A stretch of 64,000 nucleotides of DNA, taken from assembly GCA_016795365.1 (NCBI GenBank), contig JAEUHN010000040.1:124001-188000 (forward strand), read 5' to 3'. The DNA comes from Verrucomicrobiaceae bacterium (lineage in GTDB: Bacteria; Verrucomicrobiota; Verrucomicrobiia; Verrucomicrobiales; Verrucomicrobiaceae). The notes below the pieces were generated by a model. The model did no database searches. It was given only the letters and a program-made list of their open reading frames with translations, and was not told where the DNA came from. Below, piece after piece: positions 5,488-62,612 of the stretch. A program made the position numbers and the translations under genes. How positions within the stretch are numbered: position 1 is the stretch's first letter; each line of letters begins with the position of its first letter.

Positions 5488-6353
5488 GATGCCACGAGCC
5501 CTCCTCGACGAAGAATGTCTCGCACGACCACATCACTCGGCAAATCGTTCAGCGTGCTCGCGAGTCCGATGCCACGCTTCTTGCAGGAGCGCACGAGGTC
5601 ATCGTTCCACTCAGCGACAGCGGCTTCGAAGCGTCTTGCGTCTTCGGGTGTGATCGTCAGGCGGCGATACTCATTGCTCTCGATACAAGTTAGATCGCAG
5701 TCGCCGACGAAGTCCCACTTCAGATCGCTGGGTGCGAGCGTTTGCAGGCAGAAGACATCGTGGTTGTGCCATTGCAGGAAACTCAGCCCGTCGTCGAAGC
5801 CGCCGGGAAACAAGAAGTCCGAGATCACGATCACCACGCCACGACGACGATGTCGCGCCTGGAACTGACGGCAGCACGACGTGAAGTCCGTGGCGTTGCC
5901 AAAGGTCGGCGCAGTCTCCAGCGCTCGCAGGAAGGGGAAGAGCTTCGCCTTGCCGCGCGTCGGTTCGAGCAAGGGCTTCAGCGTGTCCGCCAACGCATAC
6001 GTCGCGAGCCGGTCGTGCGTGTTGAGTGCGATGTAACCGAGCGCGGCGGCCAGCTCACGAGCCTGTTGGAGCTTGGCCTGCATCGACGGACTGGTATCGA
6101 CGAGCAGGTAGATGGTCGCGTCTTCTTCCAGTTCAAAGAGCTTGATCAGCAGCGACTCAAACCGCGCAAACACTCGCCAGTCGATCGCCCGGTAGTCGTC
6201 GCCCGGATTGTATTCCGCATAGTCCGCGAACGTGATGCCCGAGCCCTTCTTGATGCTCCGCCGATCCGCCTGCAACGAGCCCCCCAGCACTTTGCGAGCA
6301 AGCAGGTGCAAGGACTCCAGCTTTTGAAGGAACTCTGGGGAGGTGAGGGTCAT
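5484..6353 (-). CDS. DUF58 domain protein
   Basis: The 289-residue protein carries the DUF58 hallmark near residues 46-63 (FADYAEYNPGDDYRAIDW), followed by a VWA-like strand YLLVDTSPSMQ and the helix GVVIVISDFL. DUF58 proteins are VWA-related partners encoded beside MoxR AAA ATPases and probably act in assembling or activating membrane complexes. There is no signal peptide or membrane helix, so it should be cytoplasmic. The C-terminus reads RRGGLVAS, and the stop overlaps the next gene's start. Between it and MoxR lies an extra 153-codon gene, which is unusual because the two are normally adjacent. Confidence 0.9.
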   Translation of the reverse strand: MTLTSPEFLQKLESLHLLARKVLGGSLQADRRSIKKGSGITFADYAEYNPGDDYRAIDWRVFARFESLLIKLFELEEDATIYLLVDTSPSMQAKLQQARELAAALGYIALNTHDRLATYALADTLKPLLEPTRGKAKLFPFLRALETAPTFGNATDFTSCCRQFQARHRRRGVVIVISDFLFPGGFDDGLSFLQWHNHDVFCLQTLAPSDLKWDFVGDCDLTCIESNEYRRLTITPEDARRFEAAVAEWNDDLVRSCKKRGIGLASTLNDLPSDVVVRDILRRGGLVAS

Positions 6354-54925: not shown

Positions 54926-55267
54926 CAAGGCCAGAGCCTCTCTTCTCCCCGTAGCCAGCGGTCGGTTCGTGCTGTCTATGGCAGGCCGCACCCCCACGCC
55001 CCCAGGATGGCATCCCGCAGAATCTCCGCGCTTGATTTGGCTCAAGTAATGATCATCCAAAGCCTGATTTATCGGGACATGAGCGGGCGAATGCTACTGT
55101 GAGCCTGGCATTTTATTTTTTATTTGGGCTGTGACAGCGGAGTGGGCGAAGGCGGTTGGCCGCTGGCACTGACCATGCTTCGGATGTGCGGCGCCTGACG
55201 GCCATGCGGCCCGAGCCTCACCGCTGCACAGTCAGGCACGAACGTAGCAGCCACCTACCGGGAAGGA

Positions 55268-55401
55268 GGTAACTACACACAATGTCGCGGTAATGTGGCG
55301 AGGCTTTGCGAGCGAACAGTTGGCCGCCGGGTCCCGTTCGTAGCGCAGCGGAGGCGGGTGGCGGCCAACTGCACATTACTCCGCATTGTGTCGTAGTTAC
55401 C
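55268..55401. repeat. 134-bp interrupted palindrome
   Basis: Four nested arm pairs are exact reverse complements: GGTAACTAC 55268-55276 with 55393-55401; CACAATG 55278-55284 with 55384-55390; GTAATGTG 55290-55297 with 55372-55379; CAGTTGGCCGCC 55317-55328 with 55360-55371. Thirty-six base pairs close around a 31-nt loop, with small internal mismatches. It could fold as a long RNA hairpin or cruciform. Confidence 0.8.
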
Positions 55402-55407
55402 GTCTCG

Positions 55408-55555
55408 GGTGCGGAGCCGTGGAGCTTTGCGACACGCACTCGATGCGGTTGGTTCATCCGGGTGCGGAGCTGCGGCGTTACGGAAAGCCGCACTGTTCCT
55501 TGCGGCAGGGGTGGGAGCGGGCGGAGCAGTTCGGCGGCTGGCAACGGTGCGGAGC
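55408..55555. repeat. Three GGTGCGGAGC direct repeats
   Basis: The 10-mer GGTGCGGAGC occurs at 55408-55417, 55461-55470 and 55546-55555. It is followed by related text (CCGTGGAGCTTTGCGAC after the first copy, CCGAGGAGCTTGGCGAC after the third). The spacing (53 and 85) is uneven, so this is a dispersed repeat family rather than a tandem array. Confidence 0.6.
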
Positions 55556-55584
55556 CGAGGAGCTTGGCGACGAGCTGGAGTTGG

Positions 55585-56592
55585 TCAGCGTTGGGATGGG
55601 TCGGCTTCAAGATTCCGCGAACCTGGCTTCGGGTTGTGGTAGCCTTCAATAACTGTGAAGTAATCACCAAAAGCGATCATTTCGACTTTGATGCGAGCAA
55701 AGGTGTTGTCATCAAAACGCACGAAGTATGAGCGGCGCACCGAGTCAGACCACTGAGGACGTGGCAGAGTATCGTTCATGTCGATGACATCACTCTCCTT
55801 GTAGCCACTGGCGGGGGCTTCAAACTCGAAGACTTCGCCCGAAGGCTGCAACCCGCCGTTGACCGCTTTGACCTCAAACCTCCAAGAGTATCTGCCGTCT
55901 GGTGTCACCTTGTCCTCAGTTTTGCACGCAAGAGAGATGCGGTGCGCTCCTGCATCTAGGGCAACCTCGACAGCTTCACCGGTTCGGCTCAAACGACGCG
56001 AAGTGGATTTAAGTCGGGTCAGCGGCTCAATGGTCCCAGGTTTGAACAAGTGCAGGATGACGGGCTTGGACGCATCTGGTTTGTGGATTCCTCTTCCCAA
56101 GTCTTCGGCATAGTCGAAGCCATTTTCAGACACGAACCCCGGCATTTTGTCGGGGTAGATGTGGTAATAACCTGGCTTGTCCACAGTCACAAAGAAGCTC
56201 ATGCCTTTTGAGCTGAGCGTGAAGTTGCCGGAAGCATCGGTGGTCGTCGTGACCTTTGTTGAGTTACCACCCATGGAGACAGCAGCAGAGCCTCGGACAT
56301 TTGCCCCAACAACAGGATCTCCATTTTGATCAAGAACACGGCCATAGAACGTGATGGGCGTGGCGAACGCATTCAGCATCTTTTCGGCAAAACTTTGTCT
56401 GGAGCCGGGAGGACCGCTTGCAGTTGAGGAGGCTCCTGCATTGGGTGCATTCGTGACAACTTCGGGGGCTTCTTTTCCACTTTTGCTTTTCGCATTATTT
56501 CCGGCAGGAAGCGGCTCGCTGCTTGGCGTGAACAGCCACCAGCAAGTGCAAAGAATGAGAACAGCAGCGATGATGGCGGCGAGACGTTTCAT
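55585..56592 (-). CDS. Signal-anchored protein with carboxypeptidase-regulatory-like domain
   Basis: The 335-residue protein starts at ATG 56592 with a basic, hydrophobic N-terminus (MKRLAAIIAAVLILCTCWWL), probably a signal anchor or signal peptide. A Ser/Ala-rich spacer leads to a carboxypeptidase-regulatory-like beta domain (FYGRVLDQNGDPVVGANVRG, TTTDASGNFTLSS, FFVTVDKPGYYHI). A second beta region follows (about 195-320), ending YFVRFDDNTFARI. It lies five bases after the stop of the giant exoprotein gene, so the two are likely co-expressed. The C-terminal 20 residues reach the edge of the repeat-rich interval. Confidence 0.72.
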   Translation of the reverse strand: MKRLAAIIAAVLILCTCWWLFTPSSEPLPAGNNAKSKSGKEAPEVVTNAPNAGASSTASGPPGSRQSFAEKMLNAFATPITFYGRVLDQNGDPVVGANVRGSAAVSMGGNSTKVTTTTDASGNFTLSSKGMSFFVTVDKPGYYHIYPDKMPGFVSENGFDYAEDLGRGIHKPDASKPVILHLFKPGTIEPLTRLKSTSRRLSRTGEAVEVALDAGAHRISLACKTEDKVTPDGRYSWRFEVKAVNGGLQPSGEVFEFEAPASGYKESDVIDMNDTLPRPQWSDSVRRSYFVRFDDNTFARIKVEMIAFGDYFTVIEGYHNPKPGSRNLEADPSQR

Positions 56593-56597
56593 GGTGA

Positions 56598-59500
56598 TCA
56601 GTTGGGATGCGTGTCGATGCCAAACTGCCTGAGCAATCTCGTGTAACACTCAAAGCTTTTCTGAACCGAATAAACCCACTCGGCGCTATGCTCTTCGCCA
56701 AAACCATAGCCATCCATGCTTTCGGAAAACTGAACACTTCCTGCCGTGAAGCTCGTGTTGCCAGCCGGTTTCGAGCGCGATTGCGCCACATAGGCCATTG
56801 ATTCGGGTATCTTCGTTACTTGCCTTCCTCCAGTAAGACTGAGATTGCCTGCACCGCTGGCGTTTCCAGTTGTAATGTTATACCACATCTTCTGCCCGAT
56901 ACCGTCCAGTCCAGGCGGATAGGTGAGAGTGGAGCCATAAACATTGTGAGGGAAGTTTGGGAAGTAGGACCAGTATCGACCTGTGAAGAAGGTCGGTAGA
57001 TTTTCTGGTTTGTTCTGAGCATGGTTGAACTGCCAAGCTCCCATCGCAAAATCCTGAGTTAGATAGAAGTTAATGGCAGTGGTCGCCATCGGGTTGAACT
57101 TGTTGTGAAGCCCGAGGCTGTTGGTTTCAACATCCGACGCCGTGTCGGGTGTGGCGCGAGTCGGATATTCTCGCTGAGTTGTTCCGTAAGCCATATGTGC
57201 CATGGCGGCGTTGAACATTGCATAACGGGAGACGCCAGACATGCCCGCACGGAACGCGGAGCCTGCCACCACATTGCCCATGCTGTGCGCCATCACGTTT
57301 TTGGTGTAGCCAGATGGCAGCGAGTTCACATAACCAGCGAGAGCATTGCCAGACAACCAAGCTCGGTATTCACTGTCGTTGTAAGTTAGGCGGCCATTGA
57401 TCGGATTGAGCTCGGCCATGAGATCAGTTTCGGCGCTAAATGTGGGCCAGCGGAAGGCGGCGAACCTACCCTTGAAGCCATGATGCCACAGCCGTTTGAA
57501 TGTCGTCTGTGCCCAAGTCTGAGTTTCCGCATACTCCATGCGCCAGCCGTGAACATGAACGATGTATTGCTTGGCTTCGTCAGGATCGGCTTCGAATGGA
57601 TAGCCCCAAGGGTCGCTCGCGTGCGACAACACAGGATCAGGATCGTCACCCGTCACCCAAGCATCAGGAATGTCGTCTGGCTCTGCATAAGGAGCAGCGA
57701 CTTTTGCACGCTCAAACATACGCCTGACATCCATAATCTTGATCCACGGTCCTGGCGCGGACACCTCCTGGCTTGAACCAAGTTTGATCACAGTTGCTAG
57801 CCGTGCGGTTCCTTCTTCGCATCCCTCAAACAAGAAGCATCTTTTGCCGCCCTGAGACGTGGTGCCCTGCCAATAGGACGCAGGGAGATAAACAGCCTGC
57901 GTCCCCTTCACATCGGCAACCGACTGATAGTAGTCGCCAGAGCATTGCTCATTTCCTTTCTGCGGGTCAGTCAGATACTCCAGTCCACCAGCAGCATCCG
58001 CAGCTTTATAGAGGCGTATGCGTGGGCCACTGCCATCGACCCACTTGAAGCCAATTTGCGCTTCACCTGATGCGGCCTTTTGAACGATGTCGGCTGGCAA
58101 TGTCATGTGCAGCCTTGTGAAGTCCTCCAAGTCTCGAAGACCGTCGATGTGTCCAGATGTCGGAGCCGAACGCCAGTCTTCGAAATTGGGCGTCATCTCT
58201 TCATTTTCGGTCATCGCGCTTTCTACATCATCGCCAAGTGTGTTGGGATCATCGTCGTTGTTGATCCAAAACCTAAACGGCTTCGCTTGCGATGCTGTTT
58301 CTCCGCTGGTGATGGTGCCGTTTCTGTCTGCGTCGATGGCTAAGTCAACCGGGAGGAGGCGGAATTTCACCTCATCGGCGTCGATCCAGCGGTTGTTGAT
58401 GCGGACTTGGAGGGTGATCTTCTCGCCTTCCAGGTCACTCCCGCGCAGAGGTTTGATATACAGGCTGGTCAGGCTGTGAATATCGGGGAAAACGGTGTTG
58501 TAGGCATAGACCTCCCGGGACAGGGCGGTATCACGATAGACTTGAAACCGGCGCTCGGGGCCCGAACCAGGAGAGAAGGAGAGGCGGAAGGCAGGCTTGA
58601 GCAGGTCCTCATTGGGCATGGAGGTGGGGGCGATGGTGAGCTTGGCCACTTCCTCGGTCCGTGGCTGATGGCCAGGAATCGGGCTGTTCTCTTCATCAAA
58701 CGGGGACCTGAAGATGATGGCGGTTTTGTCGGGATCATCCTCTTCCCCATCATTGCGCTTCTCGGGCTTGGGATCGTCGTCAGGGCGTGGCAGGTAGATG
58801 TCGAGGTCAACCGGGAAATACGTCACCGTCCGCGTCACTCCGGGACTGGAAGGGAGGGGGGAGACGAACAGGCCTCTTGCAAATCCACTCGTCTCGGGGT
58901 CTCGAAGGCCGGAGGCGACCCGGAATCCGAACGATCCACCAGCGCCTCCCGAAGCTGACCACCCAAAGGCATTCGCCCAGCGATTGCCAGCGGGCACATA
59001 GAAGCTAAGCGTTGTCGTGGCCAGCAGGCTACTCCCTACTCGACCAGCGACGCTCGTGTCCATAAGGGCAATGGCGTTGAACACCCGGGGCTCATCGGCG
59101 AACTCCTCAGCGCGGGCTGTGACGATCGATGCAAAGCAAGCGCTGCGGCCGTAGCCCAAGCCTGAAATGGAATCCAAGCTGAGAAGTTGCCCTTGCCGAT
59201 ACTTTTCCTCTCGAATCCACTGTCCTATTGCCATGATGTTGCCCCAGCTTCCCGTTGTATCGTCATAGCCAAAAGGGACGGCCCGCAATTGTTCGAGGTA
59301 AATGTCTTCAAAGGCTTTCGCGTCGTTGTATTCAATCGTCGGCTCGTCGGAGAAGCTCCAATCGATCCCTAACCCTGGTCGAGTGAACTCGTGTTGACCA
59401 AAATACCTCGCTGAAGCTTCGTCCCACACATGACTGAAGTTATAAGTGAAGTAGGTCAATTTTTCGCCTGTGGCGACCTTCCATCCGAAGTCCTGGCTGT

Positions 59501-62500
59501 ATTCGGGTGGCCAGATCACGGGAGGCGGATCTCCTCCACCACCGCCTCCACCACCGCCTCCACCGCCTCCCGCGTCAAAAATATCGCTGGGGTGTTCAGG
59601 CATGGTGGTAAACTCCGGATGATCGGCGAGCGATGGCTTGACCTGAGGGTTAGTCGCCCCACCGGGCTGAGGGGACCAGAGAACTTCAACCCCATCATTC
59701 ACTCCATCTCCATCCGTGTCCTTGAGCGTCGGGTTGGTCGCAAGGTAATACTCCCAGAGATTCGAAAGGCCGTCTCGATCTGGGTCGCGACGAAGATTCT
59801 CGACGAGCGAGTAGTCGTTCTCCACATAACTGCCGGTGGTGCCTCCGTCCCGCCAATCCCGCCAATCAAAGTTGTAGTAGCCTTCCCAGGCGTTGGGCAG
59901 CCCGTCCCGGTCAATATCGTCAGACGCAGGCGGGTGGGCAGCAGGCTGGGTCTCCCGGGCCAATGGAGACAAGGCAGGGTATTTGTCGGCTCTCCACTTG
60001 TCGAATCCGTCTGGAACACCGACCGGCGGCGTATCAACATAGTTGATCCCCCAGGTGGTGACATCGATCACGGGGCAGCGCCACGTGATCCGTGAGTCCA
60101 TGACTAGATCTCGACTCACGGGAGAATGGGACCCGTAGTCGTAAAGGTAGAAAAGCTGGCCGAACCGAGAGTCCAGCACATTCAGCAACGCCTGGTCACC
60201 AGCGGAACTGGCGCGCTTCTTCTCCTCAATCAAGACACAGCCTTCGACAAAATCCCGATAGGCCTCATAGGAGTGCAACCTTTTCCATCCTGGATTCTGG
60301 GCAGCTAATGTTTGCGCCGCAGAGGCACCTGCCTGAGGTGAACCGGTCCCCCCCGACACGGGATACGCTTCCGCGAGCCATTGCCAGAGTCTCGACTCAT
60401 TCAGGTGGCCATTGTCCTGTTCCTGGCGCGCAGGATTGAGAATGAAGAACGCCGCGCCTGTGGTCACGGTTTTCAGTGTGCCGAGACGCTTATTCAACTG
60501 GAACTCAAACTGCAGTCCCAGTTCGGATGGTTGAGTGCCACCGCCGGCCAGATAACTGTCAGGAATGATTGAAGGCTTCGACCCAACTGCCGGAAACTTG
60601 GCCCTCAACGCAACGACCGACGTTTCCAGCTGGTTCGTCTCCGCCAGCCATCGAGTCCTGATGTTGATGGACCGCCGAATCTCCTCTCCGGTTAGCAGGC
60701 CATCGCCATCGGGGTCTTCAAAGGCATCGGCAAATCTGCTCTTGTTACAAAGCCCAGGCTTCTGTCGGTTCCAGTAGTCTTCTTCGATGTCCGTGATGCC
60801 ATCTCCATCTTTATCAGCCATCGACACCGCCACCGGACTCAGGCCTTCCATATAGGTCTGGAGATTGGTTTTGCCGTCGCTGTCCAAATCTCCCTGAGCA
60901 TCCATCGGATCCAACGGATTGAGCAGAGGAGCCCAGGCGGTCTCGTAGCTGTTGGGCATCCCGTCGCGGTCCCAATCCTGGTCATAGGGGAGATTCGTGG
61001 ACACTGATATCCACTCACTAGACGGCGTGGACACCAAGGGGTTGGTCTGATAAACGACGCTTTCTTCATAGTCGGTCGCCCCGTCTGAATCGGTATCCAC
61101 GTTCGTTGGATCGGTGTGCGTGGAGAAAACTTCTTCACCGTCCTTCAATCCGTCTCCGTCGCTATCTGGAACGAAAGCGCTGGTCCAATGTTCAGCTTCC
61201 TGGACGTCTGGCAAGCCATCGTTATCGGTATCCAAAGGCAATGAATCTTCGGAGTCAGAGACGCCGTCGCCGTCAGAATCCGGGGGAATCTCGGTTTCAT
61301 CGTTGAAGCCGTTGTTGTTCCAGTCGTTCCACAGTTGGGGATTGCCTGCGTGGGAATCTGCGTTGTCGTAGTAGCCATCACCGTCAGAGTCCCCGATCGC
61401 CATACTGGCCTTCCAACCTGGGGGAAGGTTGTCGGGATCAAGCCCCATCTGAATGGCAAGAGCTCTGTCCTCTGGTGAAAGGCCCTGGCTTTCCGTCGTA
61501 GAGGAGCCCGAATATGTAATCCCACCATAGCTCTCATCAGAATCGTTCACCCCATTGCGATTATGATCGCACCACAACATAGGGTTGCCAGGATCAGTAT
61601 CCGTCAAACTGTCAAACCCATCGCCGTCCTCATCAACTGCTGCGACCTGACCGTTGTCATTGCTACCGTCATTGTTCCAATCGCACCACAGTGCCAGGTT
61701 TTGAGGATGGGAGTCAGCGTTGTCAGCATAGCCGTCGCCGTCACTGTCTTGAACCCCGCTCTCCGTGTGGTCGTTCACGCCATTGCTGTTCCAATCACAC
61801 CACAGGGTGTTGTTGTTCGGATGACTGTCGGCACTATTGATGACGCCATCCCCATCGCTGTCTTCCTGATCGTCGTTCACGCCGTTGAGATTCCAATCGT
61901 TCGAGAGGAACACGTCATTGGGATTGGAGTCTGAATCATTCGCTACCCCATCTCCATCATTGTCGTTTGAGATCGAACCGCCTGCACCATTGGGCTCAAC
62001 ATCGTCATTCACTCCATTGCTGTTCCAATCGCTCCATACATAGGCGTTCCAGGGGCTGGAGTCCTGGGAATCGACGACGTAGTCGCCGTCCGTGTCCCAC
62101 TCATTGTTCACCGCATCGGTAGGATTGGGGTCATTGGGATCGGTGATGCCGTCGCCGTCCCAATCGTAAGGGGTAACACCATCGCCGAGGATCGTGGTGT
62201 CCACGGAAGTATTGCCATAGAACTCGTTGTAGTCGCTAATGCCGTCCGTATTGGTGTCTGAGGAAGTCGGGCTGGTTCCGGTGATGGTCACTTCATCGGC
62301 GTCGGTAATGCCATCGTAATCGGTGTCTGGATTATAGGCGCTGGTGCCGAGCACCATCTCGTCGGCATTGGTGATGTGGTCTCCATCCGAATCCTGAGTG
62401 CTGGTCTCCGTCGTGGTTAAAGTATCACTGGCAATCACCGAGCCAGGTGTCCCATCCCCAACAACCTCGTCATCAGCGCGAGAAGTGGGTGCAGGGGATG

Positions 62501-62612
62501 CAAGTATCAACTGTAGAAGCGCAAGCCACTGAACTAAGCGAGCTGACTGGCTCTGACGCAAATGAGCAAGGGTGGCTGAACCTAAATACCTACGGTGATG
62601 ATTGATGATCAT
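56598..62612 (-). CDS. Giant secreted protein: thrombospondin-type-3-like Ca-binding repeats plus lipase-like domain
   Basis: The 2004-residue protein has a signal-peptide-like N-terminus (about 1-46, ending SRADDE). Residues about 70-640 are rows of DxDxDG calcium-binding repeats (DSDGDHITNADE and many more), including a recurring unit of about 35 residues: DWNSNGVND, DSDGDG, ADSHP. A 13-Gly run at about 1015-1027 links to a large middle part (PVIWPPEYSQDFGWKVATGE onward). The C-terminal ~250 residues form an alpha/beta hydrolase with VHVHGWRMEYAETQTWAQTT, FAAFRWPTF, and KNVMAHSMGNVVAGSAF (Ser1777), similar to DUF900-type lipases. It is probably a cell-surface or released hydrolase stiffened by calcium. 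Confidence 0.8.
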   Translation of the reverse strand: MIINHHRRYLGSATLAHLRQSQSARLVQWLALLQLILASPAPTSRADDEVVGDGTPGSVIASDTLTTTETSTQDSDGDHITNADEMVLGTSAYNPDTDYDGITDADEVTITGTSPTSSDTNTDGISDYNEFYGNTSVDTTILGDGVTPYDWDGDGITDPNDPNPTDAVNNEWDTDGDYVVDSQDSSPWNAYVWSDWNSNGVNDDVEPNGAGGSISNDNDGDGVANDSDSNPNDVFLSNDWNLNGVNDDQEDSDGDGVINSADSHPNNNTLWCDWNSNGVNDHTESGVQDSDGDGYADNADSHPQNLALWCDWNNDGSNDNGQVAAVDEDGDGFDSLTDTDPGNPMLWCDHNRNGVNDSDESYGGITYSGSSTTESQGLSPEDRALAIQMGLDPDNLPPGWKASMAIGDSDGDGYYDNADSHAGNPQLWNDWNNNGFNDETEIPPDSDGDGVSDSEDSLPLDTDNDGLPDVQEAEHWTSAFVPDSDGDGLKDGEEVFSTHTDPTNVDTDSDGATDYEESVVYQTNPLVSTPSSEWISVSTNLPYDQDWDRDGMPNSYETAWAPLLNPLDPMDAQGDLDSDGKTNLQTYMEGLSPVAVSMADKDGDGITDIEEDYWNRQKPGLCNKSRFADAFEDPDGDGLLTGEEIRRSINIRTRWLAETNQLETSVVALRAKFPAVGSKPSIIPDSYLAGGGTQPSELGLQFEFQLNKRLGTLKTVTTGAAFFILNPARQEQDNGHLNESRLWQWLAEAYPVSGGTGSPQAGASAAQTLAAQNPGWKRLHSYEAYRDFVEGCVLIEEKKRASSAGDQALLNVLDSRFGQLFYLYDYGSHSPVSRDLVMDSRITWRCPVIDVTTWGINYVDTPPVGVPDGFDKWRADKYPALSPLARETQPAAHPPASDDIDRDGLPNAWEGYYNFDWRDWRDGGTTGSYVENDYSLVENLRRDPDRDGLSNLWEYYLATNPTLKDTDGDGVNDGVEVLWSPQPGGATNPQVKPSLADHPEFTTMPEHPSDIFDAGGGGGGGGGGGGGDPPPVIWPPEYSQDFGWKVATGEKLTYFTYNFSHVWDEASARYFGQHEFTRPGLGIDWSFSDEPTIEYNDAKAFEDIYLEQLRAVPFGYDDTTGSWGNIMAIGQWIREEKYRQGQLLSLDSISGLGYGRSACFASIVTARAEEFADEPRVFNAIALMDTSVAGRVGSSLLATTTLSFYVPAGNRWANAFGWSASGGAGGSFGFRVASGLRDPETSGFARGLFVSPLPSSPGVTRTVTYFPVDLDIYLPRPDDDPKPEKRNDGEEDDPDKTAIIFRSPFDEENSPIPGHQPRTEEVAKLTIAPTSMPNEDLLKPAFRLSFSPGSGPERRFQVYRDTALSREVYAYNTVFPDIHSLTSLYIKPLRGSDLEGEKITLQVRINNRWIDADEVKFRLLPVDLAIDADRNGTITSGETASQAKPFRFWINNDDDPNTLGDDVESAMTENEEMTPNFEDWRSAPTSGHIDGLRDLEDFTRLHMTLPADIVQKAASGEAQIGFKWVDGSGPRIRLYKAADAAGGLEYLTDPQKGNEQCSGDYYQSVADVKGTQAVYLPASYWQGTTSQGGKRCFLFEGCEEGTARLATVIKLGSSQEVSAPGPWIKIMDVRRMFERAKVAAPYAEPDDIPDAWVTGDDPDPVLSHASDPWGYPFEADPDEAKQYIVHVHGWRMEYAETQTWAQTTFKRLWHHGFKGRFAAFRWPTFSAETDLMAELNPINGRLTYNDSEYRAWLSGNALAGYVNSLPSGYTKNVMAHSMGNVVAGSAFRAGMSGVSRYAMFNAAMAHMAYGTTQREYPTRATPDTASDVETNSLGLHNKFNPMATTAINFYLTQDFAMGAWQFNHAQNKPENLPTFFTGRYWSYFPNFPHNVYGSTLTYPPGLDGIGQKMWYNITTGNASGAGNLSLTGGRQVTKIPESMAYVAQSRSKPAGNTSFTAGSVQFSESMDGYGFGEEHSAEWVYSVQKSFECYTRLLRQFGIDTHPN
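59532..59570 (-). repeat. Poly-glycine codon run in the giant exoprotein
   Basis: Thirteen consecutive Gly codons (mixed GGA/GGC/GGT, reading the minus strand) lie between DA and DPPP. The mixed codons make slippage less likely than in a pure run, but the trinucleotide repeat is still a plausible length-variable linker. Confidence 0.9.

What the first reader, a model, noticed from the sequence alone, without database searches (positions are those of the whole stretch)
55268..55401. Large nested palindrome in a gene-free interval
Four exact arm pairs (9, 7, 8 and 12 bp) nest in register over 134 bp, far more order than expected by chance. No gene lies inside. It may be the relic of a miniature inverted-repeat element, a structured RNA, or a recombination or chromosome-organisation site.
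Basis: seen in the sequence. Interest (0 to 1): 0.55.

Follow-up and report, generated by a model that had tools for sequence, protein, structure and literature searches.

The report
Folded element behind toxin-like gene cassettes
The palindrome is the core of a conserved, foldable, gene-free DNA element that sits behind swappable giant-protein gene cassettes in Verrucomicrobia and appears to travel with them between species; its exact job is not yet known.

Summary
The nested palindrome is real: it folds far better than shuffles (z -7, 0 of 200) and is the core of a larger non-coding element, about 55132-55584. It is single-copy in its own genome, but its right arm or whole fold occurs in 14 of 68 family genomes, in several genera, and in one genome of another family. 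The pairing is kept by selection: 11 of 46 pairs show two-sided compensatory changes, 5.5 expected, 0 of 500 shuffles as high. The element lies just behind genes that run toward it, typically a giant secreted RHS or TSP3-repeat protein followed by a small partner gene, a layout like polymorphic toxin cassettes. The genes before it differ while it recurs, and at one locus shared by two species cassette and element both differ, near-identity resuming about 170 bp past the element. Best reading: a structured 3' boundary module that travels with exchangeable cassettes. Whether the fold acts as RNA or single-stranded DNA is open. Tests argue against a MITE, a REP, an integron attC site and any Rfam family. 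Toxicity of the giants is inferred, not shown.

The parts
55132..55584 (+). whole conserved non-coding element (the left edge varies among copies, the right edge recurs at 55578-55584)
   Evidence: BLAST of relatives
55187..55232 (+). left module, conserved GGCGCCTGACGGCCATGCGGCC-like block
   Evidence: alignment; edges
55268..55401 (.). nested palindrome, core of the element
   Evidence: covariation
55268..55284 (.). outer left arms, nearly invariant in sequence
55384..55401 (.). outer right arms, nearly invariant in sequence (CATTGTGTCGTRGTTACC)
55317..55371 (.). inner hairpin with compensatory changes; lost in L068 and in L140/L097
55434..55584 (+). right module, adjoining the partner gene; also found without the palindrome
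55408..55433 (+). repeated GGTGCGGAGC..GAGCTTTGCGA unit; a second copy at 55546-55571 and a partial one at 55459-55475
   Evidence: families D1 and D3
55585..56592 (-). partner gene, 335 aa, CarboxypepD_reg match; its stop codon is the first base triplet after the element
56598..62612 (-). giant gene, 2004 aa, TSP3 repeats

Best explanation
The palindrome is the folded core of a modular, non-coding 3' boundary element of exchangeable giant-protein cassettes: an RHS or TSP3 giant with a variable C-terminus, then a partner gene, then the element. SHOWN: position behind such genes, conservation of the fold, patchy distribution across genera, recurrence behind different genes, and one locus shared by two species where cassette and element differ while the flank beyond is nearly identical. 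INFERRED: the element travels with the cassette and offers the downstream stretch of homology through which cassettes are gained or replaced. INFERRED, less certain: the fold is kept because it works on the nucleic acid behind the partner's stop codon, most simply as a 3' end structure of the cassette transcript, otherwise as a single-stranded DNA hairpin during exchange.
For: Fold selected: 96.2% of 598 cells paired, 11 of 46 pairs with two-sided changes (5.5 in shuffles, 0 of 500), slid controls at most 3. Position: in 17 of 17 palindrome-bearing loci whose upstream side is visible, the nearest ORF not overlapping the element runs toward it (L069 and L087 start at a contig end). Of 35 loci, 22 have the stop of an ORF of at least 100 codons within 40 nt before the element (some of these ORFs may be mechanical), and 20 have a long ORF on that strand within 2.5 kb upstream, against 7 with one on either strand downstream. 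Giants: Rhs_assc_core over cut-off in 5 of 12 scanned; TSP3_bac over cut-off in the window's giant and in 4 of 9 scanned. Repetition behind successive genes in L139 and L067. Exchange: L068/L140, L066/L073 and L076/L130. Tree of 17 copies not clustered by genus.
Against: The shuffle control does not keep relatedness, and one of its measures, further pair types, is not raised (24 against 22.9; 145 of 500). Two short fragments, L132 and L079, do not follow the gene orientation, and L144 has no evident giant. Displacement arrays exist without the element (L187; L190), so it is not needed for displacement. The whole element folds only moderately well and not in every copy. Element genomes are not clearly richer in Rhs cores (median 3 against 2, p 0.09). 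The tree has only one well supported inner branch. At the L068/L140 locus fast divergence in place rather than a swap cannot be excluded; the two giants still share about 30% aa identity.
Confidence: 0.5

Rival explanations
1. A cis-acting RNA element only: a 3' UTR structure of the giant/partner mRNA (end, stabiliser or regulator), or an antisense RNA from the other strand. It lies in the cassette because it belongs to the transcription unit and plays no part in exchange.
For: Selection on base pairs, position directly behind stop codons and usual orientation.
Against: No transcript data; no Rfam match. High identity across genera and modular truncation exceed what an end structure needs. The strand could not be settled: 53 G-T against 17 A-C cells on the + strand, 35 of the 53 from three pairs, and 16 against 14 pairs affected.
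Confidence: 0.28
2. A non-autonomous mobile element (for instance one moved by a Y1/RAYT transposase through its single-stranded hairpins) that tends to insert behind genes.
For: Patchy distribution and genus mixing; Y1_Tnp genes in 67 of 68 family genomes and near the element in 6 or 7 of 35 loci.
Against: The RAYT genes examined carry their own inverted ends, unlike the element; one copy in this genome; left edges vary and no clean empty site was found; no strand-free insertion pattern.
Confidence: 0.13
3. An integron attC site of gene cassettes.
For: Integron-type integrase over its cut-off in 24 of 68 family genomes, this one included; attC sites also follow genes (recalled).
Against: In G028, which has the element, the repeats of about 100-155 bp upstream of the integrase do not resemble it, and the sequence upstream of ten integrase genes gave only 13-nt matches at E 0.85. 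The own genome's array is not visible (171 nt to the contig end). Association not significant: 8 of 14 against 16 of 54, p 0.067. The element is longer than those repeats.
Confidence: 0.03

Closest known systems
Rhs C-terminal displacement and polymorphic toxin cassettes (PMC2935791 and PMC3482391; passages read)
   Same: A giant gene with exchangeable C-terminus, a partner behind it, displaced tips in arrays, replacement by recombination
   Different: The passages read describe homology in the core and tip/immunity pairs; a conserved folded non-coding element behind the cassette was not mentioned in them
Integron attC sites (recalled; compared with repeats beside integrases)
   Same: A foldable site behind each gene, arrays of cassettes
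   Different: No sequence likeness to the repeats of a genome that has both; several hairpins over about 450 bp
GTAG/CGTC REPs and RAYT elements (PMC3733652; passages read)
   Same: Palindromes found behind genes, possibly RNA or DNA hairpins, RAYT genes nearby
   Different: REPs are 20-40 bp and repeated; this is about 450 bp and single here; nearby RAYTs have other ends
MITE
   Same: Inverted repeats without a gene
   Different: Arms internal to the conserved element, single copy here, no target duplication identified

Membership tests
Polymorphic toxin cassette locus (for the neighbouring genes) | giant secreted or RHS protein with conserved core and variable C-terminus | tested here: met
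   RHS core or TSP3 domains; core shared and C-termini different, e.g. L187 against the window giant
Polymorphic toxin cassette locus (for the neighbouring genes) | arrays of displaced tips with partner genes | tested here: met
   L190 in the own genome and L187 in the congener; not at the window locus itself
Polymorphic toxin cassette locus (for the neighbouring genes) | C-terminus is toxic and the partner gives immunity | not testable with these tools
   only weak alpha/beta-hydrolase matches in relatives; needs an assay
MITE | terminal inverted repeats | tested here: not met
   the arms lie 136 bp and 183 bp inside the conserved element
MITE | multiple copies in the genome | tested here: not met
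   one place in the own genome
MITE | target site duplication | tested here: inconclusive
   left edge varies and no clean empty site was found
REP of the GTAG/CGTC kind | 20-40 bp palindrome in many copies | tested here: not met
   134-bp palindrome, one copy
Integron attC | likeness to attC repeats of integrons in the same genomes | tested here: not met
   own array not visible
Known Rfam RNA | match above gathering score | tested here: not met
   0 matches in the window; two sub-threshold miRNA matches of 19.9 and 16.8 bits against 83
Structured nucleic acid element | compensatory changes in proposed pairs | tested here: met
Structured nucleic acid element | expressed as RNA | not testable with these tools
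   no expression data

The most novel reading that the evidence does not exclude
A dedicated folded recombination site of polymorphic-toxin-like cassettes: its single-stranded hairpin is recognised by a cellular or mobile enzyme that adds or swaps giant-protein C-terminus/partner cassettes, an integron-like trade in toxin tips without an integron.
Probability: 0.12. Interest if true: 0.85.

Novelty: new variant of a known kind. Interest (0 to 1): 0.55.

Why it matters
How bacteria exchange toxin tips together with the matching partner gene is explained, in the passages I read, by homology in the conserved core. A conserved folding element at the other end of the cassette could supply the second homology arm, would mark cassettes for genome mining in Verrucomicrobia, and would make the exchange mechanism testable.

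Tried and rejected
MITE relic: not supported (internal arms, single copy).

Integron attC: integrases are common in the family, but repeats beside an integrase in a genome that also has the element do not resemble it.

RAYT-driven REP: RAYTs recur near the element, but those whose ends were examined have their own inverted ends.

Known RNA family: no match above threshold. Plasmids, phages and viral contigs: no match (one search was an exact scan for one 20-base pattern).

Strand of the fold: left open. Rhs richness and integrase presence as predictors of the element: weak (p 0.09 and 0.067).

Rows left out: alignment A1 used 13 copies; L068, L140/L097, the second L139 copy, L075, L069, L066, L081/L157 and L158 were left out for deletions, truncation, a changed left arm, or because found later. 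One search used 17 rows of A3, leaving out the reverse-strand matches, L157 (same as L081), L069, L068, L140 and L097. The tree used 17 rows. Neighbour counts rest on 35 chosen loci, not on every match, which scored at most 9 candidates a genome. Among the 20 upstream long ORFs, that of L130 looks like a topoisomerase (my recognition, not searched) and L135 holds masked bases.

Papers: listings (open-licence PMC papers only) showed no description of this element; three papers were opened and only passages read (PMC2935791, PMC3482391, PMC3733652). That is no proof that it is not in print.

It was also badly formed. This version states the orientation exceptions L132 and L079, gives 35-40 of 40 where I had 36-40, and says that the L068 and L140 giants are distantly related rather than unrelated.

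Full report
WHAT IS THERE. The window holds the nested palindrome at 55268-55401 as described. Its folding is far beyond chance (z -7.02, 0 of 200 shuffles). Relatives differ by indels that break any frame, so it is taken as non-coding. The exact arms are unique in the own genome (at zero mismatches).

THE LARGER ELEMENT. A 481-base query around it matched 33 of 68 whole genomes of the family at E <= 0.01, several matches being short, with at most 9 candidates scored a genome; the twenty best matches have 74-86% identity besides the window itself. On the window, matches run over about 55132-55584: the right edge recurs at 55578-55584, the left edge varies, and beyond the right edge the sequences differ in many copies, though some share the 3' end of a gene. 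The right module also occurs without the palindrome. The palindrome's right arm, with up to two mismatches, occurs in 13 of 68 family genomes. A covariance model found the fold in 13 of 386 genomes of the order, among them one more family genome, G062, and G104 of another family; together 14 of 68 family genomes. G005 and G006 among these have lost part of the palindrome. An exact scan of GTDB contigs for one 20-base pattern gave 17 stretches, all with Verrucomicrobia, Verrucomicrobiota, Verrucomicrobiaceae or Prosthecobacter in the title. No match in plasmids or phages, nor for the pattern in IMG/VR contigs.

THE FOLD IS SELECTED. In 13 aligned copies the consensus structure has 46 pairs. 96.2% of 598 cells pair; 11 pairs show two-sided changes against 5.5 in shuffles (0 of 500), and the slid controls give at most 3 (RNAalifold). 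One measure, further pair types, is not raised (24 against 22.9; 145 of 500), and the shuffles do not keep relatedness. Outer arms are nearly invariant; the inner stem changes in matched fashion (GTTGGCC/GGCCAAC, GTAGGCC/GGCCTAC, GCAGGCC/GGCCTGC). L068 lacks the inner hairpin, and L140/L097 lack it with part of the left arm. The functional strand is not settled: 53 G-T against 17 A-C cells on the + strand over 17 copies, 35 of the 53 from three pairs. As RNA the whole element folds moderately well in the window (z -2.50 on +, -2.24 on -), with a spread from -6.87 to +1.33 over 17 stretches and two strands (25 shuffles each).

WHERE IT SITS. In the window the element ends at the base before the stop codon of a minus-strand partner gene (55585-56592), which follows a 2004-aa TSP3-repeat giant (56598-62612). 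In one search the nearest ORF that does not overlap the element runs toward it in 17 of 17 palindrome-bearing loci with a visible upstream side; two short fragments without the palindrome, L132 and L079, do not follow this. Over 35 loci, 22 have a stop of an ORF of at least 100 codons within 40 nt before the element; 20 have a long ORF on that strand within 2.5 kb upstream, against 7 with one on either strand downstream. Two unrelated giant families share it: RHS proteins (Rhs_assc_core over cut-off in L139, L142, L145, L066, L067) and TSP3 proteins (over cut-off in the window, L143, L138, L129, L074). In L139 and L067 pieces of the element stand behind successive genes. This layout resembles polymorphic toxin cassettes (PMC3482391, passages) and Rhs C-terminal displacement (PMC2935791, passages). 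Displacement arrays without this element exist in the own genome (L190: a 1703-aa gene and five further core repeats with partner genes) and in the congener G003 (L187). Toxicity and immunity are inferred from layout only.

EXCHANGE AROUND THE ELEMENT. At one locus of two congeneric species (G007:C74, L068; G006:C98, L140) the downstream flank is 95% identical. Going toward the cassette, identity is 35-40 of 40 bases a window in the flank, drops about 170 bp past the element to 27-34 of 40, and is 21-38 of 40 in the element outside the deleted hairpin. The genes before it share only about 30% aa identity in the giants' C-terminal part. I read this as a cassette that came with its own element; faster divergence in place is not excluded. 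Between G024 and G028 a stretch of 1575 bp (tip, 3' sequence and the first ~137 nt of the element) is 93% identical (L066/L073). Within G019 two copies are 97% identical over 637 bp from the element onward while the sequence before differs (L076/L130). A tree of 17 copies is not clustered by host genus (7 changes; shuffled mean 6.8), but only 1 of 14 inner branches is well supported. In G013 a relative of the window's partner gene (80% DNA identity) has only about 25 bp of the element behind it.

WHAT IT IS NOT. MITE, REP, integron attC and Rfam families fail tests listed in the membership table. RAYT transposases recur nearby, those examined being separate elements with their own ends.

VERDICT. 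Association with such genes and selection on the fold are shown; travel with cassettes is supported by a few natural cases; the molecular role of the fold, RNA or single-stranded DNA, is inferred only.

Noticed in passing
L190 (G000:C13:63000-80000): The own genome holds an Rhs displaced-tip array: a 1703-aa gene followed by five further core repeats with tips and small partner genes.
   Followed up: partly
L129:7989-9164, L131:2323-3484, L140:2785-3950, L077 and single copies in L073, L134, L144: RAYT (Y1_Tnp) genes flanked by inverted GGGGTCAGGGTGCAACTGCTTGACAAA-like ends, with gene-free single copies of the ends nearby: a separate mobile family.
   Followed up: partly
L140:2714-2785 and 5730-5802; also L076, L132, L143: A further short hairpin unit (GCAGTCATCGGC..GCCGATGACT-like) directly before the element in several loci, once next to a RAYT insertion.
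   Followed up: no
L035, L045, L050, L051, L070, L080, L038 right flanks: Several partner genes before the element share a DNA-level conserved 3' end coding for a membrane tail like SSTPWSIIVVLIVAATGLLWLLLKKRK.
   Followed up: no
L175 (G028:C26:20500-40000): An integrase over the integron cut-off with repeats of about 100-155 bp upstream, like attC arrays; 24 of 68 family genomes have such an integrase over cut-off.
   Followed up: partly
L045 and L070 inside the element; also L129, L072: An alternative block rich in CGAGCGAG stands where the palindrome-bearing part would be, as if element modules were interchangeable.
   Followed up: no
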